A stretch of DNA of 22,263 nt from a virus, in IMG/VR virus record IMGVR_UViG_3300033148_005226, positions 1-22,263 of that record; one strand, written 5' to 3'. The notes under the pieces are model-generated. The model had not been told where the DNA came from, did not search any database, and saw nothing but the letters and a program-made list of their open reading frames with translations. The position numbers and the translations under genes are program-made. Positions 762 through 22,260 of this stretch are shown piece by piece. The first letter of the stretch is position 1. Each line of letters begins with the position of its first letter.

Positions 762-3338
762 CTAAAATTCTTCAGTATTTATCACCTTACCTATATTATC
801 AACCATATTAATTGCTTCCTCTTTTTGTCTATTTACATTTAATATCATATTAGTATAAGCTTCATCAAATAATTTAACCCACTCTGGTACAATATGTTTT
901 TGCCAATCCATTTTTGTAGTTACCCATTTATAACCATTTTCAGCTCTGCGTTTAGCTTCTTCACGGTTATTATAAATTTCCAATAATTTTTCTACCATAT
1001 CTTCAACATCTACTAATGGACGTCTAACTTCATTGTCGAACTGAATAGTAGTCCATAGTGATGGATTAGAACCACTTTTAGCTAGCCAGCCTATATCTCC
1101 AGTTATAAATTCCGGCAACATAGTATTAGCTGGCATAAGAATAGGAGTTTTAGTTGCAAGCGACTCAAGCCATGAAAGCCCAAAACCTTCTCCAAGTGTA
1201 GTACTAACGACCACATCACTGGCATTATAAATTAAATTTAAAACTTCTCTTGGATATCCTTGATTAGGACCAAAATTTTTTGGAAATATAACATCTTTTG
1301 ATGTATCAAAGCCAAATGTTTTACAAACTTCTGCTAAATCCCAACCTTGGTCTTTAATTGCACAGTTGTGTACAATAAAGCCATTAGCACAATAGGACTC
1401 ATCTTCTTCTACAGACATATTATAAAGATAGCCATCATATCCGCATTCTTCTATTTTATAAATTTTACATAGTACAAAATTATCCAACCAAGAATGGTAG
1501 TTACAAACATCTCTATTTTTATTGCTTTTAGTTAAGTTAAAATAATTATATAATTTATCAGCCTCTGCATGAATGGCTAAAGTATACCCATTAAATTGAT
1601 TACTAGCTTGGCATATACGCAAAGAAGAGAATATTCCATAACGTAATAAACCAGACTGTAACAAAGACATTAAATTTAATGACACACTACTATAACTTAT
1701 AAATCTCTCATTATAGTGACCGTCTCCATCAAACATACCTTTAATAAACGACATAAATTTATAGACTGGTAAAAAATTGAATACTTCAGGATAACATTTA
1801 GTATGTGCCGAATGCCCAAACAATATCTTAAATAAACGTGCTAGTGTTGTGCAGAAAAAACTTATTCGCATAGTATGTGTGTCTTCAAACACTTCTACTT
1901 TACCATCTAAGTCAAATATGTCTTTCATAGCGGATAATAGCTTGTCACGCATCTCTAGTTCATTAATATTAAATGTAAAATATATAGCGTCGTGATGACC
2001 TTTTACACAACCTTCCGACACATATAAACCAAACACATATAGTAATTCATCGGTTATCTTTATAATGTTTGGTATAGATTTAGTATTTGGATGATTAGAC
2101 GTTTTAATACGCCCATTATTATCGATAATATAATTTTGATTATTGCTAGCAAATATATCAGACACACACAACTCATCAGGAACAATAACATCATCAGTCT
2201 TTCGTAAACGCGGTATTAATAAATAATCATCCTCCACTAGCTCTTTAACTGGAATCCACTCTGGGGTATAGGTTAAATATACACGTTCTTTACAATTAGA
2301 TTGAGCATTTTTCCATTGTTGTTTGCATGTAGGTAAACAGATTCTCGTATTAGTAGAGTTATGTTTACATTTAGCATGTTTAATAGCTAATACTTTATGA
2401 TCTTCAGTAATTGTAATTGGTTTATTTCTACCAACAACATAAACATTAAAAACTTTCTCATCTTTATTTAATTTACGTTTAGAAGTCTCATATACTCGTC
2501 TAAATCGACCTTCGTGAGTTAATACGTAATCACCAATTCTAATATCTTCAATAGTTTTAACACCATTTAATACCCTTATCTCAGTACCTTCAGCTAAACA
2601 ATGTAAATATAGAGTGCTATTAGGAACATGCTTTCTAAATTCTTCAAAAACAGCTATTGTTCGTGGTATATCTTTACGTTGTTGATTCCTATTGACATTC
2701 GTTATGATAAAAGTATCAGACAACGGACCAAAATATTGTTTTCTAAAATTCATAACGTCTGTTTCTGGTAATGGATAAAAATCTCTTGTATTAACACCAT
2801 GAGGAATTACTAATATATCTCTATCAACTCTTTTTAAAGTTTCTTGCTTACCAAATTCAGAATATGCAACTAAATAATCAACATCTTTTATATTATCAGC
2901 CCATTCTTGTTTAATAATAGAATCTACTGGATAATAACAAATAGATCTAAACGGTTTACTTCTATTTTTCTTCAAATGATCTAAAAGCATAGGCACAAAA
3001 TTCAAAATGAAACTATCTTGAAGAAAAAATAAAATATCAAAATCCATTAACGGAATCATGTTCAAAACTTTTTGCCTTCCATATGGGTCTTTCTGATTAT
3101 TTGTCCCAGTAGGCCATATTCTATAAGGAAAATTATGTGGGTCGCCCCAATAATTAATGCCAAGAATCTCAATATCAAACCGTCCAGTTCTATATAATCC
3201 CTCAAAAATATTACGGCTTACAGTTGCAAACCCAGTTGCACATGTTGGACTATCGCAGTATCCTAACACCTTAATTTTTCTTTTAGCTCCTTTCCTTTGC
3301 GTAGATACAACCTTCTTTCTATTTTTCTTTTTAGACAT
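762..3338 (-). CDS. GT4-like glycosyltransferase interrupted by an intein
   Basis: This 858-residue precursor has two extein parts, residues 1-246 and 659-858, which join into a glycosyltransferase of about 446 residues, normal for the family. The N-terminal part has KVLGYCDSPTCATGFATVSR (Rossmann entry loop) and VAYSEFG, VIPHGVNTRDFYP. The C-terminal part has the GT-B retaining motif E717-GFGLSWL-E725 (EX7E) in TTLGEGFGLSWLES. A GGAGG site at 3346-3350, seven bases before ATG, fixes the start. The start overlaps the end of the 800-residue nuclease gene by eight bases. The Lys/Arg-rich N-terminus is not a signal peptide, so action in the host cytoplasm is likely. Substrate and acceptor are unknown. 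The enzyme should work only after the intein splices itself out. The next gene is a second glycosyltransferase, so the pair may act in one pathway. Confidence 0.92.
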   Translation of the reverse strand: MSKKKNRKKVVSTQRKGAKRKIKVLGYCDSPTCATGFATVSRNIFEGLYRTGRFDIEILGINYWGDPHNFPYRIWPTGTNNQKDPYGRQKVLNMIPLMDFDILFFLQDSFILNFVPMLLDHLKKNRSKPFRSICYYPVDSIIKQEWADNIKDVDYLVAYSEFGKQETLKRVDRDILVIPHGVNTRDFYPLPETDVMNFRKQYFGPLSDTFIITNVNRNQQRKDIPRTIAVFEEFRKHVPNSTLYLHCLAEGTEIRVLNGVKTIEDIRIGDYVLTHEGRFRRVYETSKRKLNKDEKVFNVYVVGRNKPITITEDHKVLAIKHAKCKHNSTNTRICLPTCKQQWKNAQSNCKERVYLTYTPEWIPVKELVEDDYLLIPRLRKTDDVIVPDELCVSDIFASNNQNYIIDNNGRIKTSNHPNTKSIPNIIKITDELLYVFGLYVSEGCVKGHHDAIYFTFNINELEMRDKLLSAMKDIFDLDGKVEVFEDTHTMRISFFCTTLARLFKILFGHSAHTKCYPEVFNFLPVYKFMSFIKGMFDGDGHYNERFISYSSVSLNLMSLLQSGLLRYGIFSSLRICQASNQFNGYTLAIHAEADKLYNYFNLTKSNKNRDVCNYHSWLDNFVLCKIYKIEECGYDGYLYNMSVEEDESYCANGFIVHNCAIKDQGWDLAEVCKTFGFDTSKDVIFPKNFGPNQGYPREVLNLIYNASDVVVSTTLGEGFGLSWLESLATKTPILMPANTMLPEFITGDIGWLAKSGSNPSLWTTIQFDNEVRRPLVDVEDMVEKLLEIYNNREEAKRRAENGYKWVTTKMDWQKHIVPEWVKLFDEAYTNMILNVNRQKEEAINMVDNIGKVINTEEF
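1365..2600 (-). mobile_element. Intein with LAGLIDADG homing endonuclease, 412 residues
   Basis: The intein spans precursor residues 247-658. It begins with Cys247 in CLAEGTEIRV (block A), has TEDHKVLAIKH at 311-321 (block B), and ends with GYLYNMSVEEDESYCANGF then IVHN658 (blocks F and G). It is followed by Cys659 as the +1 nucleophile, so all visible splicing residues are present: Cys1, the TxxH histidine, the penultimate His, the terminal Asn and the +1 Cys. Two dodecapeptide motifs of a LAGLIDADG (DOD) endonuclease are present: VFGLYVSEG at 435-443 and IKGMFDGDG at 532-540. Their acidic catalytic residues (Glu442, Asp539) are kept, so the endonuclease looks active. The target would be the uninterrupted glycosyltransferase gene, cut between the codons for LYLH and CAIKDQGW. 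Extra cysteines at 324, 334, 338 and 349 may bind zinc. The boundaries are exact at codon level. Confidence 0.95.
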
Positions 3339-5733
3339 TATTAAACCTCCGTAATCTTATCTGTAGTAATATATTATAATACTCCTTAAACCATTCCCTA
3401 TCCGAATTAGCTCTAATATTACATCGTCTACATAATGTTATTAAATTATTAGGATTACAATTCTTCTTATTATAATCAATATGATGTATAGTTAAATCCT
3501 TATCATCAATTCTATCACATAAAGGGTTTAGACATCTATAACCATCTCTCTTTTTAATCGCCTCTTTGAACCCTTTTATATACCATTCTTTACAATACTC
3601 TTCTTTAGAACTACCCCCTTTCCAATTAGCGTTGCCTTTACCAGTAATTTTCTCGTAATAACAATATTTACAACGATAACCTTGTACCCAATCAGACCAA
3701 GTAACTTCCCAATAATGATCATTAGGACAAATGCATTTAAGCTTTTGTTTATTATTTTTATAAACAGAAGTTAATAAAATATAACCTTCTTTCTCAAAAC
3801 TCTCCTTAACCTCATTTATAGTCTTTTTAATATTATTGGCACATTTAGCACATCTATAATCTAATTTCCAATTAGACCAAGTTATGTAATGTTTATGTCC
3901 ATTAGGACAAATAAATACTAATTTTTGTTTATTATTAACATACTTTTTGGTTAATAATTTATACCCTTCTTTTTCAAATGAATTTTTAATGTAATCATAG
4001 GAATGCCTACCTCCTCCATTACAATACTTACATCTATGTTTACCAGCTGACCAAGCATTCCACCCAATTTTAAAAAAATGTCCATTAGGACATAATACAT
4101 CTAACTTAGATTTACGATTTATATATTTATCAGAAAGTAAAGTATACCCCTCTTTAGCCATTTCCTTACGTATAAAACTAATAGACACTGATACATTTCT
4201 TGAACAATAATAACATCTGGCACCTTTTTTCCAATTAGTCCAAGTAATACTATGTTTATGCCCATTAGGGCATCTATACACATATTTAGTTCTACCGTTA
4301 AATTTTTCGGTACCAATCAGCCTATAACCTTCTAATTCAAAAGAATGTCTAACATAATTTAACGATACTCGGTTTGTTTTCTCTAAAATAGTTATTCCAC
4401 AGTCATAGATTTCATACTTGCCGCCAGACCTAACTCTATTATTCCTATTATCAACAAACCATTTTTGTGGTTCTAACTCATACTTTACTTTAAACCCTAA
4501 ATTTTCAAAAAAATTAATATCATATATCCTCCTATCTACACAAAAAATTAGTTTATAATAGCTATTTTTAAATTCAACTAAAAATTTTTTAATAGAATCA
4601 TAATTAATATATTTATTATACAAATCAACTAAATATTCCATATAATCTATCTTATAAGTTTTTATATCATATATAATTTCAACGTCTACACCGCAAATAT
4701 CTAAAATAAAATTTTTAACATCGTCTTTATACAATTCAAATTCATCAGAAAAAACAGTTAATAATTTATAGCCAATCTCATTACACTTATTCAATTTAAC
4801 CTGGTGGTAATCATAACTAACAAATTTATTAGAATGCCAATATAAACCACAATATTCAATAGCTAACTTATATTGAGGAATAACAATATCTAATTCAAAA
4901 GGAAATATTAACTCCCTATCATGTAATTTATAATCAATATTATATTTGTTTAATAAATCTAGAATTGCTTGTTCGCCAGAAGATATGTTTATACTACATT
5001 TTGGACATCTACAACCTTGCTGCCAATCATTCCATCTAACAAAATACTTATGACCATTAGGGCACTCAACTTCTAATTTATCAAAAGCATTGTTATATAC
5101 AGTACTCAATAATTTATAACCTTCTTTAGACAAACTATTTTTTACATAAGCATAAGATAACCTATATTCACTAGCCAATTTAATATAATGACACATCTTG
5201 CACCCGCGCCCAGCTTTTAATTTACTATAGCAAGTTTCAAAAACATGGCCATTACTACACTTAACTATAATTTTAGATTTACTGCCATTAAACGGCTCTT
5301 TATAATATAATAACACAAAACCCGATAAATTTAACAAGTTTATTAGTTTTTCTTTAGAAATTTTTCTACTAGAAAAGTAACATTTCCTACACCTAACCCC
5401 CTTTTTAAAATTAGTATATGAAATTTCACCTTTATGTCCATTAGGACAAATATAAAGTAATTTTTGTTTAGTATTTTTATAGTCTTTTTCACTTGTCAAT
5501 AGCTTATAACAAGCCGATTCAAATAGGGCCTTAACTTCAGAATAGGCTACTCTATAAGAACAAAAAGGGCATCTACGCCCTTTTTTCCAGCTATTTAATG
5601 TTAACTTAAAAACATGCCCTTTGTTACACTTAATAAATAATTTATCGTAAACACCTTTATATTTAGAAGACAATAACTGATAGCCTTCGTCTTCAATTAA
5701 TTTCGTTACTGTTAATAAAGTATATTTACGCAT
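3331..5733 (-). CDS. Zinc-ribbon module array with central Vsr-like nuclease and C-terminal HNH nuclease
   Basis: The 800-residue protein has eight zinc-ribbon modules of about 58-62 residues, consensus EGYkLLs..Y.n..kL...CPNGH...tW..W..G.RC..C. Modules 1-4 occupy residues 1-247 and modules 5-8 about 456-693. Between them lies a Vsr-like PD-(D/E)XK domain of the EDxHD homing type (about 251-350), with Glu254, Asp282 (FELDIVIP), Glu293 (AIEYCG) and His300 (YWH). It is followed by a shortened copy of the GNAT-like domain usual in that family (about 390-452, CVDRRIYD, LGFKV, YDCG). The C-terminus is an HNH nuclease with IHHIDYNKK at 749-757, Asn763, and zinc cysteines 734, 739, 768 and 771. Each module likely binds zinc through Cys-x3-His and Cys-x2-Cys, and the array probably binds DNA. 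The start overlaps the previous gene by eight bases with no clear ribosome site, suggesting coupled translation. The homing role is inferred. Confidence 0.85.
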   Translation of the reverse strand: MRKYTLLTVTKLIEDEGYQLLSSKYKGVYDKLFIKCNKGHVFKLTLNSWKKGRRCPFCSYRVAYSEVKALFESACYKLLTSEKDYKNTKQKLLYICPNGHKGEISYTNFKKGVRCRKCYFSSRKISKEKLINLLNLSGFVLLYYKEPFNGSKSKIIVKCSNGHVFETCYSKLKAGRGCKMCHYIKLASEYRLSYAYVKNSLSKEGYKLLSTVYNNAFDKLEVECPNGHKYFVRWNDWQQGCRCPKCSINISSGEQAILDLLNKYNIDYKLHDRELIFPFELDIVIPQYKLAIEYCGLYWHSNKFVSYDYHQVKLNKCNEIGYKLLTVFSDEFELYKDDVKNFILDICGVDVEIIYDIKTYKIDYMEYLVDLYNKYINYDSIKKFLVEFKNSYYKLIFCVDRRIYDINFFENLGFKVKYELEPQKWFVDNRNNRVRSGGKYEIYDCGITILEKTNRVSLNYVRHSFELEGYRLIGTEKFNGRTKYVYRCPNGHKHSITWTNWKKGARCYYCSRNVSVSISFIRKEMAKEGYTLLSDKYINRKSKLDVLCPNGHFFKIGWNAWSAGKHRCKYCNGGGRHSYDYIKNSFEKEGYKLLTKKYVNNKQKLVFICPNGHKHYITWSNWKLDYRCAKCANNIKKTINEVKESFEKEGYILLTSVYKNNKQKLKCICPNDHYWEVTWSDWVQGYRCKYCYYEKITGKGNANWKGGSSKEEYCKEWYIKGFKEAIKKRDGYRCLNPLCDRIDDKDLTIHHIDYNKKNCNPNNLITLCRRCNIRANSDREWFKEYYNILLQIRLRRFNNV
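3346..3350 (-). promoter_or_regulatory. Ribosome binding site GGAGG for the intein-bearing glycosyltransferase
   Basis: GGAGG reads on the minus strand seven bases before ATG 3338 and sits inside the last codons of the upstream 800-residue nuclease gene. The glycosyltransferase therefore has its own strong initiation site despite the eight-base overlap. By contrast, the upstream nuclease genes starting at 5733 and 13767 have no clear site. Confidence 0.75.
3655..4368 (-). repeat. Zinc-ribbon modules 5-8 of the 800-residue nuclease
   Basis: These are four in-frame modules of about 59 residues each, with zinc pairs in CPNGH...RC-x2-C form (for example Cys488/His492 with Cys507/Cys510). Module 8 reads CPNDH in place of CPNGH, and module 6 has one extra residue (GKHRCKYC). 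The DNA copies are partly conserved: the same 15-mer coding CPNGH occurs at 3895-3909 and 4078-4092. Confidence 0.85.
4993..5733 (-). repeat. Zinc-ribbon modules 1-4 of the 800-residue nuclease
   Basis: These are four in-frame modules. Module 1 (CNKGH...LNSWKKGRRCPFC) lacks the first tryptophan of the W-x2-W pair, exactly as module 1 of the 349-residue protein does, so the two N-termini are homologous. Module 3 is the most divergent (CSNGH...CYSKLKAGRGCKMC). Module 2 carries the same 15-mer DNA copy of CPNGH at 5434-5448 that recurs elsewhere. Confidence 0.85.
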
Positions 5734-6628
5734 AATTTTTAACTATAAACTTTTTATGCCCGCAGTCCCAAACCCTATCAATACCGTTATTTATCATGTT
5801 TTGATACTCAGTTAAATTAGGATCAAACGTCTTTAATTTTTTAGCTAATACAGACTTTCTATAAGAAAACCTATGCACTCTACGTCCATTTATTATATAA
5901 AAATAATTGGTTTGAGTAAATTTATCAAATTCAAACCCTAAATAATTATAAACATTCCCACTTGTAAAACGTAAATCAGCATATGTAACAATATCATTAT
6001 TACCATGATCATACGTATCGATAAAAAACTTAAACATTTTACTAGCTAACCCAGGAATATTATGGCCAACTAAAGTGCAAAACCTATCCATCTCTAAAGC
6101 TGCGCTATTTCTAGACAAATTGCCTTTCCTAAAAGACATAACTCCTACTAAACGTCCATTATAAAACGCACCTATATCGATTTTCCTACCATAATTTCTA
6201 CCGTGAATATGGTTATTAGATAAAAAATAATTTGATGTGGTAGAATCCAAATAAGAAATACTACAATTACGCGCTCCACACAGCCTAGTAGACAACTTTA
6301 ACTTATTACGTAACACCGAAAGTACAATTTCAAATAAAAAACTTATCTCATCTTCAAAAAATTGTAAAATAACCCACCCATTAGAGTTAAAACTTAGATA
6401 CTTTTCTAACATATACCGCCTAGGCAAAACGCCTAATTTAAACATATTTTGCTCAAAACAATTTTCAAATTTATAAATAACAACAATAGTTTTAAAAGCC
6501 TCTATAAGTATTTCTAACTCACCAACTCTACCAATATTCAATTTATACTCCACGCCATTATTATACAAAAAATATAACAATTTTTCATAATTCGTATCAA
6601 AGAGTTCCTTATCATAATTAAATAACAT
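5726..6628 (-). CDS. Homing-endonuclease relative with degenerate nuclease site and intact GNAT-like domain
   Basis: The 300-residue protein resembles the second half of EDxHD homing endonucleases of large phages. Residues about 119-255 hold the GNAT-like domain: FLSNNHIHGRNYG, IGAFYNGRLVGVMSF, LEMDRFCTLVGHNIPGLASK, IVTYADLRF and NVYNYLGFEF, then HRFSYRK and a closing WDCGHKKFIV. The N-terminal 110 residues align with the Vsr-like domain of the next gene (YNNGVEYKL with KYNIDYKL; GELEILIE with FELDIVIP; FFEDE with FSDEF). The expected catalytic Asp is Glu39, and the Glu and His positions hold Val/Ile and Phe, so cleavage is unlikely. The gene begins 12 bases after the RecB/Cas4-like nuclease gene and overlaps the 800-residue gene by eight bases. 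It may be a partner subunit, an acetyltransferase-like domain or a decaying mobile gene. The family is fairly sure, the role unknown. Confidence 0.7.
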   Translation of the reverse strand: MLFNYDKELFDTNYEKLLYFLYNNGVEYKLNIGRVGELEILIEAFKTIVVIYKFENCFEQNMFKLGVLPRRYMLEKYLSFNSNGWVILQFFEDEISFLFEIVLSVLRNKLKLSTRLCGARNCSISYLDSTTSNYFLSNNHIHGRNYGRKIDIGAFYNGRLVGVMSFRKGNLSRNSAALEMDRFCTLVGHNIPGLASKMFKFFIDTYDHGNNDIVTYADLRFTSGNVYNYLGFEFDKFTQTNYFYIINGRRVHRFSYRKSVLAKKLKTFDPNLTEYQNMINNGIDRVWDCGHKKFIVKNYA

Positions 6629-6640
6629 AGTAATACCCCG

Positions 6641-7771
6641 CTATTGCTTTATTTTACGGACACCTATAAATGGACTAGTATACTCTTTTACAGCCGACTC
6701 CTCCACATAAACTCTTATGTCTGGTTTGTTTACCAAATACTTATCAGCCTCTTTTTTAGATACAGTAACTAACTTCAAAAAATCTTCTACAGGTATATGT
6801 CTATACAACGTTTCTGGGTTATAAGTCGTCATTAATCTTTGCTTTGGATAAAACTCTTTACCATTACCAACTAAATTCTTTTGTGTCGATTCGATTTTAT
6901 TTAACATATAACGACGCAACTCTCTTTCGCGTTTATCAATAATACGTTTTTTACTTTGAACCTTTTGATACTCTACCAACAAGTCTTCATCTTCATAGTC
7001 TTCCGGTTTTTTCTTAATAAATAAATTACCACCAACAGCCTCATGGTACGCCGTACAATTTTCAGTAAAGTCGCACCAGTTACACATATCATTAAGTGTA
7101 GGAGTCGCATCTTCTTTTTTCAACGTAAGCATTTCTTGATAAATTGCTGTTATATACTCTAAAAAACTTTTACGTTCTTCAATAGTTCTATATGTATAAA
7201 CAGGGTTACCTCTTAAATAATCCAATGACAAAACAATACGCTTATAATTTGGATATTTAATATTCGCCACCAAGTCATAAATAGACAACTGTATATCAGA
7301 TTTTAGTTCATCCTGTGTTTCAAAATATTTAGACGTTTTATAATCAGTCACCAACAACGTATCATCATCAATTTCTTCAACTTTATCCATAGCGCCAATT
7401 AAAATGACTCCCGTGTCGGTTGTTACATTAAAACGCTCTTCAATAGAAACTATTTTACCATTGACAAAATTTTTTAATCGCTCTAAAACCATATCCAGGC
7501 CATCTTTATAAATAATTGGGTCTTCAATACCTCCTTTAGCAGCGAGCCTACTATATTCCTCTCGTATATTTTTAATGTCCTCTGCTGTAAACTTTTCTTT
7601 CTCTCTCCAAATTTTTCCAGCCAAAAATAAAGCACCGTGTACAGCCAGCCCCAACTTAAACGATAGGTTGGGTTTTCGCGGCAATTTTAAAACATAATTA
7701 CACCAATATTTCCATTTACATTGTAAAAACATGGACAGCCGTGTAGCAGAAACCATAATAACATTATTCAT
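6641..7771 (-). CDS. RecB/Cas4-like PD-(D/E)XK nuclease with iron-sulfur cluster motif
   Basis: The 376-residue protein shows the RecB-type nuclease motifs in order: His45 in LGLAVHGALF, Asp129 in IGAMDKVEE, Asp143-x-Lys145 in VTDYKTSK, and Gln161/Tyr165 in DIQLSIYDL. Four cysteines are placed as in the AddB and Cas4 4Fe-4S cluster: Cys18 in LQCKWKYW and Cys230, 233 and 239 in MCNWCDFTENC. Family members are 5' or bidirectional exonucleases that trim DNA ends. With RecA and a RuvC-like gene in the same operon, a role in phage recombination or genome processing is likely. A GTG nine bases upstream is also in frame, but GAGGTG (7778-7783) sits six bases before the ATG at 7771, so I prefer that start. 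A charged C-terminal region after about residue 250 (KKKPEDYEDEDLLVEYQK) may be a separate helical domain. No cas genes are nearby, so this is not CRISPR adaptation. Confidence 0.9.
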   Translation of the reverse strand: MNNVIMVSATRLSMFLQCKWKYWCNYVLKLPRKPNLSFKLGLAVHGALFLAGKIWREKEKFTAEDIKNIREEYSRLAAKGGIEDPIIYKDGLDMVLERLKNFVNGKIVSIEERFNVTTDTGVILIGAMDKVEEIDDDTLLVTDYKTSKYFETQDELKSDIQLSIYDLVANIKYPNYKRIVLSLDYLRGNPVYTYRTIEERKSFLEYITAIYQEMLTLKKEDATPTLNDMCNWCDFTENCTAYHEAVGGNLFIKKKPEDYEDEDLLVEYQKVQSKKRIIDKRERELRRYMLNKIESTQKNLVGNGKEFYPKQRLMTTYNPETLYRHIPVEDFLKLVTVSKKEADKYLVNKPDIRVYVEESAVKEYTSPFIGVRKIKQ

Positions 7772-7777
7772 AATAAT

Positions 7778-7783
7778 CACCTC
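7778..7783 (-). promoter_or_regulatory. Ribosome binding site GAGGTG that decides the nuclease start
   Basis: GAGGTG reads on the minus strand six bases before ATG 7771. The in-frame GTG at 7780-7778 overlaps this site and has no ribosome site of its own, so the later ATG is preferred. It overlaps the stop codon of the RuvC-like gene, which favours coupled translation. Confidence 0.65.
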
Positions 7784-11870: not shown

Positions 11871-12347
11871 TTACTCCAGATTAAATTGTAACCATTGCTT
11901 AAACTCTTCAAAAGTTAACACTCTGATATTTTTATATTTAATACTAGCACAACGGGCTTTTAACCATTCCCGCGCTCCTCTCTTAAACCCATACCCTTCC
12001 AAAACTATGATAACATTATGTTGCCTAAACGCAAGAGCAGACTCAAAAAGGTAAGGAAGTTTTTCATCAACCGATCCACTTACTTGTTGAGATCGACATT
12101 CAATTCGAATACCGTTATCTAATGAATAGCCATTTTTTAATAATAAAAATTCACTTCTACCACTGCCACCGTATATAGTTGTATAAGGAACATTTTTTAA
12201 TAAAACATACTCTGTATCAACACCGAACCTACTGGATATCCACTCCTTATATGTTAAACTTATTATATCATAACTTATAATTAACTCCTCAACACGATTT
12301 TCTAATGCATGCCCATTCGACTTAGCAACTTTTCCTTGAATACTCAT
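11871..12347 (-). CDS. PD-(D/E)XK nuclease family protein with altered ExK motif
   Basis: The 158-residue protein matches a phage family of PD-(D/E)XK fold: N-terminal helix with Glu20 (ENRVEELI), GGSGRSEFLLL around 60-70, and the strand IRIECRSQQVSGSVDEKLPY around 80-99. In relatives I know, that last motif reads E-C-K; here it is Glu83-Cys-Arg85, so the catalytic lysine is replaced by arginine, and the usual Asp of the preceding strand is Glu66. The fold and the VSGSVDEKLPYL segment are well kept, and VIIVLEGYGFKRGAREWL follows. The protein may bind DNA without cutting or cut weakly. AAGGAGAGG lies just before the ATG, so it is well translated. It sits between the Dam methylase and helicase genes; a methylation-linked restriction-like or repair role is only a guess. 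Confidence 0.7.
   Translation of the reverse strand: MSIQGKVAKSNGHALENRVEELIISYDIISLTYKEWISSRFGVDTEYVLLKNVPYTTIYGGSGRSEFLLLKNGYSLDNGIRIECRSQQVSGSVDEKLPYLFESALAFRQHNVIIVLEGYGFKRGAREWLKARCASIKYKNIRVLTFEEFKQWLQFNLE
11874..11879 (-). promoter_or_regulatory. Ribosome binding site CTGGAG that decides the start of the helical protein
   Basis: CTGGAG on the minus strand lies seven bases before ATG 11866 and spans the final codons of the upstream PD-(D/E)XK gene. It supports the shorter 157-residue product over a 172-residue reading from ATG 11911. Confidence 0.6.
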
Positions 12348-12364
12348 AACGCCTCTCCTTTCTA

Positions 12365-13168
12365 TTAATTATAAATAACTAACACCTCCTCAACTTTTGG
12401 GCGGCCATAAGCACTTATATATCTACAAGTAATTATTCTCCTACTAACATCTCCATTTTTATATAAAACATCCGTTATACCTGGAAGCCAATGATTAGAA
12501 ATTAAAATCAAAGCTGTTGACTCCTCCGCCAATTTAACTAATTGCTCATGCATTTTAAAAGTAAACCCCCCACTAGTATAATCAGTAAAATTCGAAGTTT
12601 CTGTTAATGGTAAATATGGGGGATCACAATAAATAACATCACTTTCAGTATGTTCTTTAAAAGTTACATCAAATGCTTGACACTTAAAAATATACTTATC
12701 AATATTATTTACTAAGAAAAGCATTTCTTTCTCAGGAAAATAAACATTTTTATATTTACCAAAAGGAACATTAAACTCGTTTTTAGAATTATACCTACAT
12801 AACCCATTAAAACAGTGCCTATTTAAATATAAAAAAAGCGCCGCCCTGTAATAATCAAACTCTAAACCATTAAAAATTTTTCTATTATAATAATAAACAT
12901 CCTTAACATTTCCATTAATAAATAATTGTTTACAATAGTCAATAAACTCCAATTTATATTCTTTCAATGTATTAAAAAAATTAATAACATCCTTATTAAT
13001 GTCGGCTACCAAATACTCGTCTGCTTCAATATTAAAAGAAACTACAGCTGAACCTGCAAATGGCTCTATAAAACGTTTTGGTTTAATTGGTATAGCATCT
13101 AAAATAAAATCAAGGCTCTTAGCTTTACTTCCAGCCCATTTTAATGGTGACTTAATATGCTTTCTCAT
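12365..13168 (-). CDS. dam: Dam-type N6-adenine DNA methyltransferase (D12 class)
   Basis: The 267-residue protein has the full D12-class layout: KWAGSK near the N-terminus (10-15), the SAM-binding motif FIEPFAGSAVV (33-43), ADINKDVINF, and the catalytic DPPY motif (182-185, IYCDPPYLPL). It transfers methyl from S-adenosylmethionine to adenine N6; by family the likely site is GATC, but specificity cannot be read from the sequence. The length is typical (Dam is 278). Phages use such enzymes to evade restriction or to mark DNA for replication or packaging. GATC sites occur throughout the window, so the site is not avoided. An in-frame GTG at 13174 is an alternative start; neither has a strong ribosome site, and the gene overlaps the preceding small gene by 17 bases. 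Its neighbours are a small cysteine protein and a PD-(D/E)XK protein. Confidence 0.95.
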   Translation of the reverse strand: MRKHIKSPLKWAGSKAKSLDFILDAIPIKPKRFIEPFAGSAVVSFNIEADEYLVADINKDVINFFNTLKEYKLEFIDYCKQLFINGNVKDVYYYNRKIFNGLEFDYYRAALFLYLNRHCFNGLCRYNSKNEFNVPFGKYKNVYFPEKEMLFLVNNIDKYIFKCQAFDVTFKEHTESDVIYCDPPYLPLTETSNFTDYTSGGFTFKMHEQLVKLAEESTALILISNHWLPGITDVLYKNGDVSRRIITCRYISAYGRPKVEEVLVIYN

Positions 13169-13418
13169 CTTCACTTCTTTCTTCCCAAACAGGACGTTTA
13201 CCAGTACACAAATAATCCCTAATAATCACATTACCATTTTCATCCGTAAACTCAACATAATCACTCAACATCCCTATTTGCCTACATTGAAACGATAAAT
13301 TACAATATTTCCAATCACCTTTAATAGTCCCATCATCCAATGGAATAAAATCTGGACAATCTTTTTCCATATCAGGATCTCTCGGATGTTTTTTCTTATC
13401 AGTTATTATCTCAATCAT
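13152..13418 (-). CDS. Unknown small acidic protein with four cysteines, 88 residues
   Basis: I do not recognise this protein. It is polar and acidic, with cysteines at 21, 39, 45 and 71 (KDCPDFIPL, DWKYCNLSFQC, DYLCTGKRPVW) that could bind a zinc ion or iron-sulfur centre. It ends in a charged tail (WEERSEDEKAY). There is no signal peptide or membrane segment. The ATG directly follows the stop of the upstream nuclease gene by one base, and its 3' end overlaps the Dam gene, so it is translated within the operon. AAAGGA about ten bases upstream of the ATG is a weak ribosome site. Conserved cysteines and operon placement argue for a real gene; its role is unknown. Confidence 0.6.
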   Translation of the reverse strand: MIEIITDKKKHPRDPDMEKDCPDFIPLDDGTIKGDWKYCNLSFQCRQIGMLSDYVEFTDENGNVIIRDYLCTGKRPVWEERSEDEKAY

Positions 13419-13419
13419 C

Positions 13420-13767
13420 TTAATCTATATCCTTTAACAAATTTAAAATACGTTTCAAAAATTCATCTTTATTTAATTCTGTTTCTGAATGTATATACAA
13501 TAATACAATCTCATTATATTGACAATATTCTTTTTTCAAATTATCTCTATGTTTAGAGCGCAAAAATCCTTCTTTATCTTCATGAAAATGTTTAATAAAC
13601 GAATAATGCTGCTCACCTTGAACCTCTATTGCTAAATTAAGCTCTTTTATAAAAAAATCAAAGAATAATCTATGACCCTTATATTTAATATAATATTCCG
13701 GTATTATTGTATAAAAAGGAAACACATTACGTAAAAAATCATAAGTTTTATCAGCCAACTTACTCAT
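13420..13767 (-). CDS. Small PD-(D/E)XK endonuclease, homing type
   Basis: The 115-residue protein has a compact PD-(D/E)XK core: a tyrosine-rich entry strand (YTIIPEYYIKYKGHRLFFDF) with Asp37, then LAIEVQGEQHYSF with Glu48-Val-Gln50, and an Arg-Asp pair in KHRDNLKKEYC. Such single-domain nucleases occur in phages as free-standing homing or Vsr-like enzymes that cut DNA near their own insertion point. The ATG at 13767 overlaps the end of the HNH gene by eight bases (ATGAGTAA) without a good ribosome site, so translation probably depends on the upstream gene. A TTG 12 bases earlier is in frame but unlikely. Together with the HNH protein it forms a two-gene nuclease insertion between recA and the Dam-side genes. 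It may act with the HNH enzyme or be an independent mobile gene. Confidence 0.75.
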   Translation of the reverse strand: MSKLADKTYDFLRNVFPFYTIIPEYYIKYKGHRLFFDFFIKELNLAIEVQGEQHYSFIKHFHEDKEGFLRSKHRDNLKKEYCQYNEIVLLYIHSETELNKDEFLKRILNLLKDID

Positions 13768-14809
13768 ATTTATACCCAAATTTACGACTTAGTAAACGTT
13801 TAAACCACGTTTCATACCAAACCCTATTCTTATTTACCCTACTATTACACGCTCTACAAAGCGTTATTAAATTCGATAATTCACAATTCTTTTTATTATA
13901 ATCCACATGATGTATAACTAAATCAGTATTTTTAGTACAACCAGCATTATTGCATATATATCCATCTCTCCACTTAATATATTCTTTAAAATCTCTATCC
14001 TTCCACAACGAACAATAGCGCTCAAACGATTTACCGCCTCTCCACATAGGATTACCTGAGCCAAACCTTTTAATAGCAGCGCAAACAGAACATCGCCTAC
14101 CGTGTTTCCATTTATCCCAACTAATATATATTACGTGTCCATATGGGCATTTACATTTTAATTTCGCATAACTATTAATATATCTCTCACTCAATAATTC
14201 ATACCCTTCACAAACAAACGCTTCTTTAACAATTTCATAACTCGGTTTAGCATTTCCAGCACAAACAGCGCATCTTTTACCGCTTGCCCATTCACGCCAC
14301 GTTGTATAATAAATATGTCCATTAGGACATTTAAATTTTAATTTAGTATTCCTATTAACATAACCACTGCTTAATAATTCATAGCCTTCTTCTGAAAAAG
14401 CCTTCTTAATATAATCAAACGACTTTCGTTGCTTTATGGAAGCCTTAATTCTACCACACATAAAACATCTATGCCCTTTTAACCAATTAATCCATAATAT
14501 ATAACCACGATGCCCATTAGGACATATAAAATATAACCTTTGCTTATTATTTTTATAGCCTTTATTTAATAATTGATAACCCTCTTTTTCAAACGCCGCC
14601 TTCACTTCATCATAACACCATTTTTTACGTCCAGTACACAACGGACATCTTACACCAGATCTCCAACTAGATAATGTAGTTTGATATTCATGACCTCTAG
14701 AACACTTAACAATTAAAGGTTTATAATAGCCTTGGTACTCACTTAATAATACATACCCTTCTAACTGCATTATAGATTGAACATTATATGTTGTAAATTT
14801 TTTGGGCAT
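13760..14809 (-). CDS. Zinc-ribbon module array with C-terminal HNH endonuclease
   Basis: The 349-residue protein has four tandem zinc-ribbon modules of about 60 residues (1-243) followed by an HNH nuclease (about 250-349). Modules share EGYeLLs..Y...K...CPNGH....W..W..G.RC..C; module 1 lacks the first tryptophan. The nuclease has GNPMWRGGKS, zinc cysteines 286, 291, 318 and 321, IHHVDYNKK (299-307) and Asn313, the usual HNH metal site. It is closely related to the 800-residue protein: both first modules and both HNH domains match, even partly at DNA level (13863-13925 against 3436-3498). By family it is a free-standing homing-type endonuclease, with the array likely giving DNA-binding specificity. 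The ATG has AGAGG eight bases before it, just inside the recA stop, and the gene overlaps the small PD-(D/E)XK gene. It appears intact and probably active. Confidence 0.88.
   Translation of the reverse strand: MPKKFTTYNVQSIMQLEGYVLLSEYQGYYKPLIVKCSRGHEYQTTLSSWRSGVRCPLCTGRKKWCYDEVKAAFEKEGYQLLNKGYKNNKQRLYFICPNGHRGYILWINWLKGHRCFMCGRIKASIKQRKSFDYIKKAFSEEGYELLSSGYVNRNTKLKFKCPNGHIYYTTWREWASGKRCAVCAGNAKPSYEIVKEAFVCEGYELLSERYINSYAKLKCKCPYGHVIYISWDKWKHGRRCSVCAAIKRFGSGNPMWRGGKSFERYCSLWKDRDFKEYIKWRDGYICNNAGCTKNTDLVIHHVDYNKKNCELSNLITLCRACNSRVNKNRVWYETWFKRLLSRKFGYKYE
14081..14809 (-). repeat. Four zinc-ribbon modules of the 349-residue HNH protein
   Basis: There are four in-frame copies, with zinc pairs at Cys36/His40 with Cys55/58, Cys96/His100 with Cys115/118, Cys161/His165 with Cys180/183, and Cys221/His225 with Cys240/243. 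Spacing inside each copy is almost constant, while residues between the W-x2-W pair and the last cysteines vary. The 15-mer DNA copy of CPNGH at 14315-14329 is identical to three copies in the 800-residue gene. Confidence 0.85.
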
Positions 14810-19738: not shown

Positions 19739-19990
19739 TTACATACCAGATACAGTAACAGGATACAAATCACCATACACTAAATCATTATAACCAACTA
19801 AACCAGATGGTGGAACACATACCAAAAAATGAGCAGCGCTAGTAGTAGTTGTAACATAAAATGATCCGTCACCACTAGAAGTCGTGCTATTAATAAACTC
19901 CCCAGTACTTTCTAAATAAACATAAATAGATGCTCCACTTACAGCAGTGGATTGTTCAGTAACAGTTCCTGCAAAATAATATAATGACAT
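19739..19990 (-). CDS. Small carboxypeptidase-regulatory-like (Ig-fold) protein, 83 residues
   Basis: The protein is a single Ig-like beta domain of the CarboxypepD_reg type: YYFAGTVTEQSTAVSGASIY, VYLESTGEFINSTTSSGDGS, FYVTTTTSAAHFLVCVPP. It is a free-standing relative of the C-terminal domain of the large fibre-like protein (YYIDGHVTENGSPVKRLVRL, GELVDTTTSSGDGYYRVTT), sharing TTSSGDG. Such domains fold as a beta-sandwich and in phage tails decorate or bind carbohydrate or protein surfaces. ATG has GGAG six bases before it. No enzyme motif or signal peptide is present. It probably joins a fibre or baseplate part as a small accessory unit, but a partner cannot be named. Confidence 0.75.
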   Translation of the reverse strand: MSLYYFAGTVTEQSTAVSGASIYVYLESTGEFINSTTSSGDGSFYVTTTTSAAHFLVCVPPSGLVGYNDLVYGDLYPVTVSGM

Positions 19991-19999
19991 GTTTATCTC

Positions 20000-20341
20000 C
20001 TAATCAACTACAATATCAACAATATTAGAGTTATCTAAAACTTCGTCAGCGCGCCCTTTTTGCGTCATAGAATACCAATCACATAAAGTGTTAGATTTTA
20101 AATCAATGACATTTAAAACGTCGTTAGTTATATATAACTTACTGTTTAGTACCCAAACAGAAGTAAAATTATTTGTAGTGCCAAATAAAACATCAAAATT
20201 TTTTTTAATAATTCCAAAATTAAAATTAGAGTTTGGAGCATACCCAGTATTAATAAAATTAAAATTAATTACTCCGCGTTGGCCAAAATGAAAGTTTAAA
20301 TCTAACGCAGGCCCATTTATAAAATTAAAAATCGTACCCAT
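20000..20341 (-). CDS. Small phage structural protein with F-x-F/GY motif, 113 residues
   Basis: The N-terminal half is rich in Phe and Asn, with repeated FNF and HFG blocks: LDLNFHFGQRG, VINFNFINTGYAPNSNFNFG. The pattern F-x-F-x3-GY-x4-6-F-x-FG is also found at the start of the 655-residue neighbour. The second half looks like one blade of a beta-propeller (TSVWVLNSKLYITNDVLNVI, DLKSNTLCDWYSMTQKGRAD, then EVLDNSNIVDIVVD). The ATG overlaps the last base of the upstream stop (TAATG), so translation is coupled to the fibre-like gene. I do not recognise a named family. It is likely a tail or fibre accessory, possibly a linker between the fibre and its receptor-binding part. Confidence 0.6.
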   Translation of the reverse strand: MGTIFNFINGPALDLNFHFGQRGVINFNFINTGYAPNSNFNFGIIKKNFDVLFGTTNNFTSVWVLNSKLYITNDVLNVIDLKSNTLCDWYSMTQKGRADEVLDNSNIVDIVVD

Positions 20342-22260
20342 TATAACACCCTCGGAACTAAACGATCTGCAATTAAAGCATTATACTCTTCTCCCTCATC
20401 ATCGTCAAAAACAACTACAAAATGTTGACCGCTATATGACGTTGTCACTCTATAATAACCATCGCCGCTAGAAGTTGTTGTATCTACTAATTCTCCCGAC
20501 AATCTATAATATAAACGAACTAATCTCTTAACAGGCGAACCATTTTCTGTAACATGTCCATCAATATAATAAATAGGTCCATATTCAACATCGCCATAAG
20601 TAATTAATTCATCCCAAATTGCATAATAGGTTGCCTTTATATATGCATTCGAACGCTTAACTTTTGAAACACGAACCTCATCTAACGCGCCAGCATATAA
20701 ATCATGGCCATCTGAACGCCGTCCAAACCATAAATTAGAATTAGGTAAATTAATACCAAAGTTTGTCTTTTCACTAGGTGTACTATCGTCTAATATATGA
20801 TAACAATCAGCACCATCCCAATAATGGACATTATAATGCCAGTTATTATCATAAACAGCAGCCGTTGGCTGCTCATACCAAAAACCCCCATCACTCCGAA
20901 TAGCTAAATTATTACCATAATTGTAAATACCACAACCATCGGTTGAACCATTCCAAAAAACATGAGCGTCACCATCAACATTAGTCGCAGAACTCTTAAA
21001 TAAATATTCTATAGTCCATTGATTAGATGTTGTTCCAATATTATGTGCTATATGAATATAATCGTCACTACCATCAAATTTAACTGCACACCCTGTTTTA
21101 GCATCCACCAACGACGAAAATTTCATATTACCGCCAGAAGTACCATGATTAGCATTCCTAGTGGAATCTTTAATAACATTAATTCTATCATTATCAGGAT
21201 TTTGCGACAAATGATAAACACATAAGTAATTATTATCCCATACCTGCATAGCAGCGGATTCACCTATATAACCAACTGTAGTACCATTGTCTTCCTCACC
21301 ATCATAATAAAAATATAAAACTGTGTCTGTACCTGAAACTATATTAGGAACTTTAACCCACAAAGTAGCATCATTAAATGTCCAATGCTCAATTTCAGTG
21401 TAACACGGTACATGGTCATTTGTAGTAATAATAAATTTTTTAGAGCCTGCCTGCACATGAGTAATTTTAATATTATCATAGTATTGAGTACCCGTATGAC
21501 TATAAGTATGCCAATGAAAATTTAATTTGAATTCTGTGCCTATGTAATCCAAGATTGTAGAACCAAAACTAGATGATCCTATAAATTGGTCATCAATATA
21601 CAACTTTATTGTAAATAAATCAAAATCAATAACCCATTTCACATAATGATGATTTCCATATGTAAAATTTTCATTAATTAAAGTAGTTAAGGTACCATTT
21701 AAACGTTGCCAACATGATACTTTATTACTCTTATTAGAACGCAAAGCCAAAATAAGTTTAGAATTAGTATTAATTGCATATTCAGGCGCATTATACCGAA
21801 AAACACCGCTATTATAACTAGGATTAGTACACAAAATAGACAATTGATTTCTAGCATCAGTATTATCATCATCATACCATACGGAACCGTCTACAGGATA
21901 CCAATCAAATTCAATAATATATTTACCACTAGCTTCAAATGAAGACTTGCTCAATACATTAACACCTTCAGTATCTCCTCCATTGTTTAATTGTAAATAT
22001 AATCTTCCATTATTATAACCTGAATATGAATCGCCATTAGATTTGTCTTCCCATTTGTTTATAAAACCACTACTACAATCATCATTAAAAACAACCTCAC
22101 TATTTGTTAAAGTTGTTATAATATCTGTAATATCTTTTTGGTTGATACCGGCCGCTGATGATAATTTAACCATTAGTGGGAAATTAGTTAAATCGCCTGT
22201 TATTTTAGTACCATCAATAGTTAATTTTATACGTTTATTCCACGGACTTAACCACTCCAT
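20341..22260 (-). CDS. Fibre-like host-binding protein with DUF2341, lectin (LamG) and Ig-like domains
   Basis: The 639-residue protein is a multi-domain surface-binding type. A DUF2341 domain starts at WLSPWNKRIKLTID and is split: its first half is about 3-54 (NFPLMVKLSSAAGINQKDIT), and it resumes at about 273-350 (KKFIITTNDHVPCYTEIEHW, LWVKVP, VLYFYYDG, YLCVYHLSQ). The insert (about 55-270) is a ConA-like beta-sandwich (NDDCSSGFINKWEDKSN, FDWYPVDGS, VKWVIDFDLFTIKLYIDDQF, YYDNIKI). A second lectin of LamG type is at about 385-535 (AVKFDGSDDYIHI, WTIEYLFKSS, ALDEVRVSKVKRS), and a carboxypeptidase-regulatory-like Ig domain at about 563-615. This layout fits a tail fibre or receptor-binding protein that grips host surface glycans. 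Only three bases lie before ATG 22260, so the start is likely (typical DUF2341 start) but the ribosome site is unseen. Confidence 0.8.
   Translation of the reverse strand: MEWLSPWNKRIKLTIDGTKITGDLTNFPLMVKLSSAAGINQKDITDIITTLTNSEVVFNDDCSSGFINKWEDKSNGDSYSGYNNGRLYLQLNNGGDTEGVNVLSKSSFEASGKYIIEFDWYPVDGSVWYDDDNTDARNQLSILCTNPSYNSGVFRYNAPEYAINTNSKLILALRSNKSNKVSCWQRLNGTLTTLINENFTYGNHHYVKWVIDFDLFTIKLYIDDQFIGSSSFGSTILDYIGTEFKLNFHWHTYSHTGTQYYDNIKITHVQAGSKKFIITTNDHVPCYTEIEHWTFNDATLWVKVPNIVSGTDTVLYFYYDGEEDNGTTVGYIGESAAMQVWDNNYLCVYHLSQNPDNDRINVIKDSTRNANHGTSGGNMKFSSLVDAKTGCAVKFDGSDDYIHIAHNIGTTSNQWTIEYLFKSSATNVDGDAHVFWNGSTDGCGIYNYGNNLAIRSDGGFWYEQPTAAVYDNNWHYNVHYWDGADCYHILDDSTPSEKTNFGINLPNSNLWFGRRSDGHDLYAGALDEVRVSKVKRSNAYIKATYYAIWDELITYGDVEYGPIYYIDGHVTENGSPVKRLVRLYYRLSGELVDTTTSSGDGYYRVTTSYSGQHFVVVFDDDEGEEYNALIADRLVPRVL

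What the first reader, a model, noticed from the sequence alone, without database searches (positions are those of the whole stretch)
3331..5733. Tandem zinc-ribbon array as a possible modular DNA-reading platform joined to two nucleases
Eight near-regular modules share a zinc site and W-x2-W framework while residues between these fixed points vary. A second gene (13760-14809) has four such modules and the same HNH end. A constant scaffold with variable faces, present in different copy numbers, resembles array-type DNA-binding proteins, so recognition length could scale with module number. Related ribbon modules (PF14311/DUF723-like) are known in phage homing proteins, but I know of no described reading code.
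Basis: partly seen in the sequence, partly recalled or inferred. Interest (0 to 1): 0.8.

Follow-up and report, generated by a model that had tools for sequence, protein, structure and literature searches.

The report
Phage nuclease with DNA-reading zinc-module array
This is a selfish phage DNA-cutting gene whose string of small zinc-binding modules appears to choose where it inserts: across about 100 relatives, two or so variable residues per module follow the insertion site while the cutting domain does not, so nature may hold an undescribed modular DNA-reading system.

Summary
ORF 3331-5733(-) has eight ~60-aa zinc modules, split 4+4 by a Vsr-like (EDxHD) nuclease domain and a truncated Mom-like domain, and ends in HNH. 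Gene 13760-14809(-) has four modules and HNH. Both are free-standing homing-endonuclease genes: relatives with the same gene order lack them exactly at these junctions. The kind is known (Hef; CapR/DUF723-type zinc repeats, already called 'beads on a string').

Arrays of 2, 3, 4, 5, 6 and 8 modules occur. In HNH types the array follows the insertion site and the nuclease follows the genome. In an independent Hef-type set (29 arrays), nuclease identity is the same within and between sites (0.50 vs 0.49), but the two residues inside W-x2-W are site-locked: both match in 60% of in-register modules at the same site, 0% out of register and 5% between sites. Arrays of 2, 3, 4 and 8 modules at the window's own site share last-module reader residues.

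So modular, register-dependent site recognition is well supported by inference. A base code, DNA contact and length scaling remain unproven.

The parts
3331..5733 (-). G1: 800-aa homing-endonuclease-like gene, 4 modules + Vsr-like + Mom remnant + 4 modules + HNH
   Evidence: fusion also intact in L005/L006 (74% identity), dN/dS 0.18
5557..5715 (-). module 1 (reader residues N-S)
   Evidence: module HMM
5377..5544 (-). module 2 (T-N)
5188..5352 (-). module 3 (S-K)
4993..5154 (-). module 4 (N-D)
4684..4980 (-). Vsr-like (EDxHD-type) nuclease domain
   Evidence: best structural match I-Bth0305I catalytic domain 3r3p (TM 0.77 of target), then E. coli Vsr; Hef-type profile hits 3r3p E=1e-7 by sequence
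4384..4683 (-). truncated Mom-like domain (core missing relative to intact Hef-type proteins)
   Evidence: alignment A4
4201..4362 (-). module 5 (T-N)
4018..4182 (-). module 6 (N-A)
3838..3999 (-). module 7 (S-N)
3658..3819 (-). module 8 (S-D; shares its reader signature with 2-, 3- and 4-module arrays at the same site)
3337..3654 (-). HNH nuclease domain with its N-terminal W-x-GG linker
5726..6628 (-). G2: companion gene overlapping G1 by 8 bp; Mom-like domain with a Vsr remnant that lacks the catalytic acids
   Evidence: the remnant is judged from the sequence (ELEIL...VIYKF in place of ELDIV...IEYCG)
13760..14809 (-). G3: 349-aa four-module + HNH homing-endonuclease-like gene
   Evidence: absent at this junction in L004, L021, L008 and others
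14633..14788 (-). G3 module 1
14453..14614 (-). G3 module 2
14258..14419 (-). G3 module 3
14078..14239 (-). G3 module 4
13763..14074 (-). G3 HNH domain
3331..3338 (-). insertion junction A, downstream side: the 3' end of G1 overlaps the glycosyltransferase start
   Evidence: junction is empty in L004, L007-L009, L012, L013, L016, L017, L019, L021-L024
13760..13779 (-). insertion junction B: G3 end overlaps the start of the conserved 119-aa gene
   Evidence: in empty relatives the RecA stop overlaps this gene's start codon

Best explanation
Both genes are free-standing homing endonuclease genes of a phage. Each module is an independently folded ~54-residue zinc domain (helix, beta-hairpin with C-x3-H at the turn, short W-x2-W helix, C-x2-C). 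The modules form a flexible string that binds the DNA of one insertion site, and the attached HNH (G3) or Vsr-like plus HNH (G1) domain cuts there, so that the gene is copied into phages lacking it. Site choice lies in the array: module order supplies the register and a few exposed residues per module supply specificity, chiefly columns 42-43 (the two residues inside W-x2-W), with 40, 23/24, 45 and 48. Modules are gained and lost as whole units by recombination, and nuclease ends are exchanged or homogenised among copies in one genome. Shown by sequence statistics: mobility pattern, module gain/loss, array-follows-site, nuclease-follows-genome, reader columns. Inferred: DNA contact by those residues, cleavage, homing, zinc binding. 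Not shown: base code and length scaling.
For: Mobility: presence/absence exactly at gene junctions in relatives with the same gene order; G1 dS 0.96 against 2.55 for the adjacent exonuclease gene. Array ladder: 2 to 8 modules on one HNH, 0-5 on Vsr/Mom tails. Clean 60-aa module difference between L115 and L131 at one site, later modules nearly identical. HNH set: same site/different genome, array excess given HNH p=0.0003, HNH excess given array p=0.80; same genome/different site, HNH 0.71 vs 0.58 identity, array excess given HNH p=0.56. Trees agree: array tree clusters by site (22 changes vs 28.5 shuffled), HNH tree by genome (23 vs 30.8) and not significantly by site (p=0.10). Independent Hef set, modules aligned by counting from the C-terminus: col 42 identity 0.71 same-site vs 0.15, col 43 0.86 vs 0.31, family-wise p<1/5000; nuclease 0.50 vs 0.49; holds without any one site. 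Both 42+43 identical: 59.5% in register, 0% out of register, 4.9% between sites. Col 42 was also one of the two best columns in the HNH discovery set. Window site: K24+[ST]42+D43 in the last module in 8/12 arrays of 2-8 modules vs 1/67 elsewhere. Model of G3: modules mostly pLDDT ~80-93, pTM 0.29, as for beads on a string.
Against: No binding or cleavage data. The site/nuclease asymmetry in the HNH set alone weakens when site A is left out (0.35 vs 0.47); the Hef set carries the claim. Permutations treat proteins as exchangeable, so p-values are optimistic. The K24/[ST]D signature was chosen after seeing the data. Four of 12 HNH-type arrays at the window's site do not share it. No common DNA word near the junction separates carriers from non-carriers. 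Modules 2 and 3 of G1, least like the consensus, may be degenerate. On the Hef nuclease tree sites also cluster weakly (p=0.02).
Confidence: 0.78

Rival explanations
1. The array is only a non-specific or weakly specific DNA tether (charge and affinity); the site is set by the nuclease domain and its linker, and the array-site link reflects vertical descent at each site.
For: HNH linker W-x-GG and HNH are highly conserved; without site A the HNH-set asymmetry disappears; closely related same-site pairs are orthologues.
Against: In the Hef set the nuclease tail carries no excess identity at a shared site (0.50 vs 0.49, p=0.38) while cols 42/43 do, in register only. HNH clusters by genome, not by site. 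Descent alone would not put the signal on two residues between conserved aromatics while cols 14, 19, 28 and 10 show none.
Confidence: 0.12
2. Modules act as protein-protein or RNA-binding units (for example docking on replication or transcription machinery at the locus) rather than reading DNA.
For: Zinc ribbons often bind protein or RNA (general knowledge); no solved structure of this module exists.
Against: A protein or RNA partner would not predict per-site, per-register residue conservation across phages with ~50% diverged proteins; CapR, a relative from this domain family, is reported as a DNA-binding zinc-finger repressor (PMC10448857).
Confidence: 0.06
3. Specificity is in the array but not modular: modules cooperate in one composite surface (as in I-TevI or I-HmuI), so no per-module code and no length scaling exist. 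(This is a refinement of the best explanation, not exclusive of its first part.)
For: Phage homing endonucleases usually use heterogeneous strings of motifs with uneven contacts (PMC3943268); arrays of 2 to 8 modules occupy the same junction, so length is not dictated by the site.
Against: Modules are homologous, separately folded, added or lost singly, and reader residues stay in register when an N-terminal module is added (L333 vs L349/L356/L371; L336/L387 vs L340/L376/L351/L348).
Confidence: 0.3

Closest known systems
CapR/DUF723/DUF4379 zinc-finger repeats of T5orf172 homing endonucleases (Barth et al. 2023, PMC10448857) and the PLE repressor CapR
   Same: Same domain family (PF21817 over cut-off for G1), tandem copies in homing nucleases, loss of a repeat by recombination, proposed 'beads on a string' recognition
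   Different: Here the arrays are fused to HNH and Vsr-like/Mom ends; the cited text proposes modular recognition but, in the passages read, shows no reader positions and no array-versus-nuclease dissociation
Hef homing endonuclease of phage U5 and Hef-like genes of Campylobacter phages
   Same: Hef-type architecture; tblastn hits annotated Hef-like; PHROG 3339/559
   Different: G1 has lost the Mom core and gained a second four-module array plus HNH; Hef of U5 itself was not aligned here
I-Bth0305I (EDxHD family)
   Same: Vsr-like catalytic domain, best PDB match by sequence and by fold; long target of nearly 60 bp (PMC3943268)
   Different: Only the catalytic domain is in the PDB match; whether its DNA-binding part has these modules was not tested
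HNH homing endonucleases I-HmuI and T4 Mob proteins
   Same: HNH nuclease plus separate DNA-binding regions; Mob genes are free-standing between conserved genes (PMC2988022)
   Different: Their binding regions are not described as homologous tandem arrays; Mob places HNH N-terminally
TAL effectors and C2H2 zinc-finger arrays
   Same: Works like them in outline: constant scaffold, few variable residues per repeat, variable repeat number
   Different: No homology claimed; no code, base register or length scaling shown

Membership tests
Phage free-standing homing endonuclease genes | Present/absent at one exact junction among relatives with the same gene order | tested here: met
Phage free-standing homing endonuclease genes | Nuclease domain with catalytic residues | tested here: met
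   HNH and Vsr-like domains by PHROG, Pfam and fold match; motif residues invariant in alignments A2 and A4
Phage free-standing homing endonuclease genes | Cleaves the empty allele and is copied into it | not testable with these tools
   needs enzyme assay and phage cross
CapR homology domain (PF21817) | Score above the curated cut-off | tested here: met
   G1 48.8 bits vs 24.2; G3 22.4, just below; relatives 28.9-70.3
CapR homology domain (PF21817) | Zinc-dependent DNA binding | not testable with these tools
   ligand pattern C-x3-H...C-x2-C invariant or nearly so; no assay
Hef-type homing endonuclease | Zinc modules + Vsr-like nuclease + Mom-like C-terminal domain | tested here: inconclusive
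   G1 has modules and Vsr but a truncated Mom; the intact Mom sits in the neighbouring gene G2
TALE-like or C2H2-like code-reading array | Homologous repeats with hypervariable specificity residues | tested here: met
   cols 42/43 and others are variable overall and site-locked
TALE-like or C2H2-like code-reading array | Per-module base preference (code) | tested here: inconclusive
   only a word search at one site was tried, without result
TALE-like or C2H2-like code-reading array | Recognition length scales with repeat number | tested here: inconclusive
   different lengths at one site with shared C-terminal readers; footprint not measurable here
TALE-like or C2H2-like code-reading array | Sequence or structural homology to TALE/C2H2 | tested here: not met
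   no such match in Pfam, PDB sequence or fold searches; filed as 'works like' only

The most novel reading that the evidence does not exclude
The modules form an undescribed modular DNA-recognition system with an RVD-like dipeptide (the x-x of W-x2-W, helped by columns 40 and 23/24), each module reading a short DNA sub-site in register from the nuclease end, so that recognition length grows with module number and arrays could be reassembled for new sites.
Probability: 0.35. Interest if true: 0.92.

Novelty: new variant of a known kind. Interest (0 to 1): 0.72.

Why it matters
How phage homing endonucleases acquire new sites is an open question. A natural array in which a few residues per module follow the target, while nuclease ends move independently, gives named residues and named natural pairs (same site with different module number; same genome with different site) on which modular recognition and length scaling can be tested directly. 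If a code exists it would be a new small zinc-based scaffold for sequence-specific DNA binding.

Tried and rejected
Modules as chance Cys repeats: rejected. The 119-aa gene 13420-13779 as part of the element: rejected, it is present in almost every relative whether or not the element is. Intron-encoded: no group I/II intron or other Rfam family in the window. A solved relative of the module: none by sequence or fold (weak, incoherent matches). Common DNA word at site A in arrays sharing the last-module signature: nothing specific. A second HNH sample for replication: only 5 same-site pairs, too few to decide. The family-wise p printed was faulty (undefined columns) and was redone. Possible bias of the last scan (one search pattern lies in a module, [IV]RWND[WF]Q): the sites that carry the result do not contain that pattern, so they came in through the nuclease pattern. 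Literature on the CapR repressor and on I-Bth0305I itself was not held.

Full report
What is there. The window is a fragment of a phage record, nearly all genes on the minus strand. ORF 3331-5733(-), here G1, encodes 800 aa with eight zinc modules, four before and four after a middle region, and an HNH end. The middle region is a Vsr-like nuclease of the EDxHD type: best fold match I-Bth0305I catalytic domain, then E. coli Vsr; sequence support. It is followed by a Mom-like domain whose core is missing. G1 is therefore a Hef-type protein fused in frame to a four-module HNH protein. The same fusion is intact in L005 and L006 at 74-75% identity, with purifying selection on every part (dN/dS 0.08 for modules 5-8, 0.27 for modules 1-4, 0.15 Vsr, 0.19 HNH), so it is not a recent accident. 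ORF 13760-14809(-), G3, has four modules and HNH. The gene just upstream of G1, G2 (5726-6628), holds the intact Mom-like domain and a Vsr remnant that has lost its acidic residues (sequence).

They are mobile insertions. A search with neighbouring core genes brought relatives with conserved gene order. The junction between the exonuclease gene (6641-7780) and the glycosyltransferase gene (762-3338) is empty in most of them and is occupied by module proteins of other lengths in others; the RecA/119-aa-gene junction is empty in all but a few. Occupants sit exactly between genes. The synonymous divergence of G1 from its L005 counterpart (0.96) is below that of the adjacent exonuclease gene (2.55), as expected for a gene that moves, though co-conversion or selection could also contribute.

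The array is a real ladder. With a module profile, 84 non-redundant module proteins were found in the first scans: HNH types with 2, 3, 4, 5, 6 or 8 modules (13, 31, 17, 2, 1, 2 complete cases), one unit every ~60 residues. Vsr/Mom types carry mostly 3 or 4. L115 and L131 sit at the same site and differ by one clean 60-aa module, by recombination between modules 1 and 2, while their later modules are nearly identical. One insertion site holds arrays of 2, 3, 4 and 8 modules, so the site does not dictate module number.

Array follows site, nuclease follows genome. For pairs of HNH-type proteins, module arrays were compared with the HNH ends. Pairs at the same site in different genomes have more similar arrays than their HNH identity predicts (p=0.0003), but not more similar HNH than their arrays predict (p=0.80). 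A noise explanation based on length was checked: the conserved columns of the array, a smaller and noisier measure, show the same asymmetry (core given HNH p=0.006; HNH given core p=0.53). Pairs in the same genome at different sites show the reverse: HNH identity 0.71 against 0.58, and no array excess (p=0.56). Trees give the same picture: the array tree clusters by site (22 changes, shuffled 28.5 +/- 1.4), the HNH tree by genome (23, shuffled 30.8 +/- 1.3) and not significantly by site (p=0.10). The genome effect survives every leave-one-out; the site asymmetry depends on the best sampled site.

Reader columns. In that set the columns with the strongest site excess were 24 and 42. An independent set of Hef-type arrays was then collected and compared with modules aligned simply by counting from the C-terminus, without fitting. 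Nuclease identity was the same for same-site and different-site pairs (0.501 vs 0.494, p=0.38). Column 42 was 0.71 vs 0.15, column 43 0.86 vs 0.31, followed by 23, 40, 45, 48, 38 and 24, all family-wise significant; columns such as 14, 19, 28 and 10 showed nothing. Both residues of the W-x-x-W dipeptide match in 59.5% of in-register module pairs at one site, in none out of register, and in 4.9% between sites. Leaving out any site does not change this. On the Hef array tree the sites fall into perfect groups (4 changes for 5 sites), on the nuclease tree less so (7 changes). These positions lie on the last residue of strand 2, the start of the short W-x2-W helix and the loop before strand 1 in the model of G3, and their residues are mostly N, D, S, H, K, R, Q and T, the kind that contacts bases (inference).

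The window's own site. In the last module, K24 with [ST]42-D43 occurs in 8 of 12 HNH-type arrays at the exonuclease/glycosyltransferase junction, with 2, 2, 3, 3, 3, 4, 8 and 8 modules (G1 among them), against 1 of 67 elsewhere; Q-K at 23-24 occurs in 5 of 12 against 0 of 100. The signature was chosen after inspection. At two Hef sites the arrays with four modules have their extra module at the N-terminus, and the three C-terminal modules keep most of their reader residues. This is what one expects if the register is counted from the nuclease end and arrays grow at the far end.

How it most likely works. The string of zinc modules binds the site, the nuclease cuts beside it, and repair copies the gene in. 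Shown here: architecture, mobility pattern, module gain and loss, the array/nuclease dissociation, reader columns. Inferred: zinc, DNA contact, cutting, homing. Open: a per-module base code and length scaling. I could not find the target: the conserved flanking codons are common to all phages at the site and no word separates carriers from non-carriers.

What is known. Tandem CapR/DUF723/DUF4379 zinc fingers in T5orf172 homing endonucleases, their 'beads on a string' nature, recombination between repeats and the DNA-binding repressor CapR are published (PMC10448857). Hef and I-Bth0305I are known homing endonucleases (PMC2988022, PMC3943268). In the papers that could be searched I found no report of reader positions, of arrays following the site while nucleases follow the genome, or of a code; most subscription papers are not held. 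The family is therefore known; the evidence for modular, register-dependent site reading is new as far as I could check.

Noticed in passing
762-3338 (-): The glycosyltransferase gene carries an intein with a LAGLIDADG domain (protein residues ~247-660); L004 and L016 have a similar long form, L005, L010 and others lack it.
   Followed up: partly
5726-6628 (-) with 3331-5733 (-): Complementary decay: G2 keeps the Mom-like domain but its Vsr part has lost catalytic acids, G1 keeps Vsr but has a truncated Mom; both are under purifying selection (dN/dS 0.18), which suggests a two-gene split of one Hef-type protein's functions.
   Followed up: partly
L088 8670-10268, L015 8130-9725: A homing nuclease carries a Mom-like (DNA-modification type) C-terminal domain over or near the Pfam cut-off; whether it protects or modifies the target is unknown.
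   Followed up: no
11871-13174 (-): Dam-type methyltransferase next to a PDDEXK_11 protein, a possible restriction-modification pair; the nuclease is missing in L004 while Dam stays, and both are missing in most relatives.
   Followed up: partly
13420-13779 (-): 119-aa Vsr-like protein conserved in nearly all relatives although PHROG matches it to homing nucleases; it looks like a domesticated core gene.
   Followed up: partly
L089 796-2967, L014 5674-6966, L333 2-3007: RecA of 723 aa, RuvC-like protein of 430 aa and a glycosyltransferase with an apparent intein: this phage group carries many insertions in core genes.
   Followed up: no
L340 4608-5445: Three group I introns in a row downstream of a Hef-type gene.
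   Followed up: no
3337-3654 and 13763-14074 (-): The HNH domain matches the HNH part of the IscB profile (E=1e-6 and 1e-8, far below that profile's cut-off).
   Followed up: no
L049 9593-10903, L054 1265-1471: Broken remnants of module proteins at the same kind of junction, i.e. the decay stage of the element's life cycle.
   Followed up: no
19739-19990 and the C-terminal end of 20341-22260 (-): Two proteins share a short STTSSGDGxxxVTT-type stretch (translations), probably a virion or adhesion domain.
   Followed up: no
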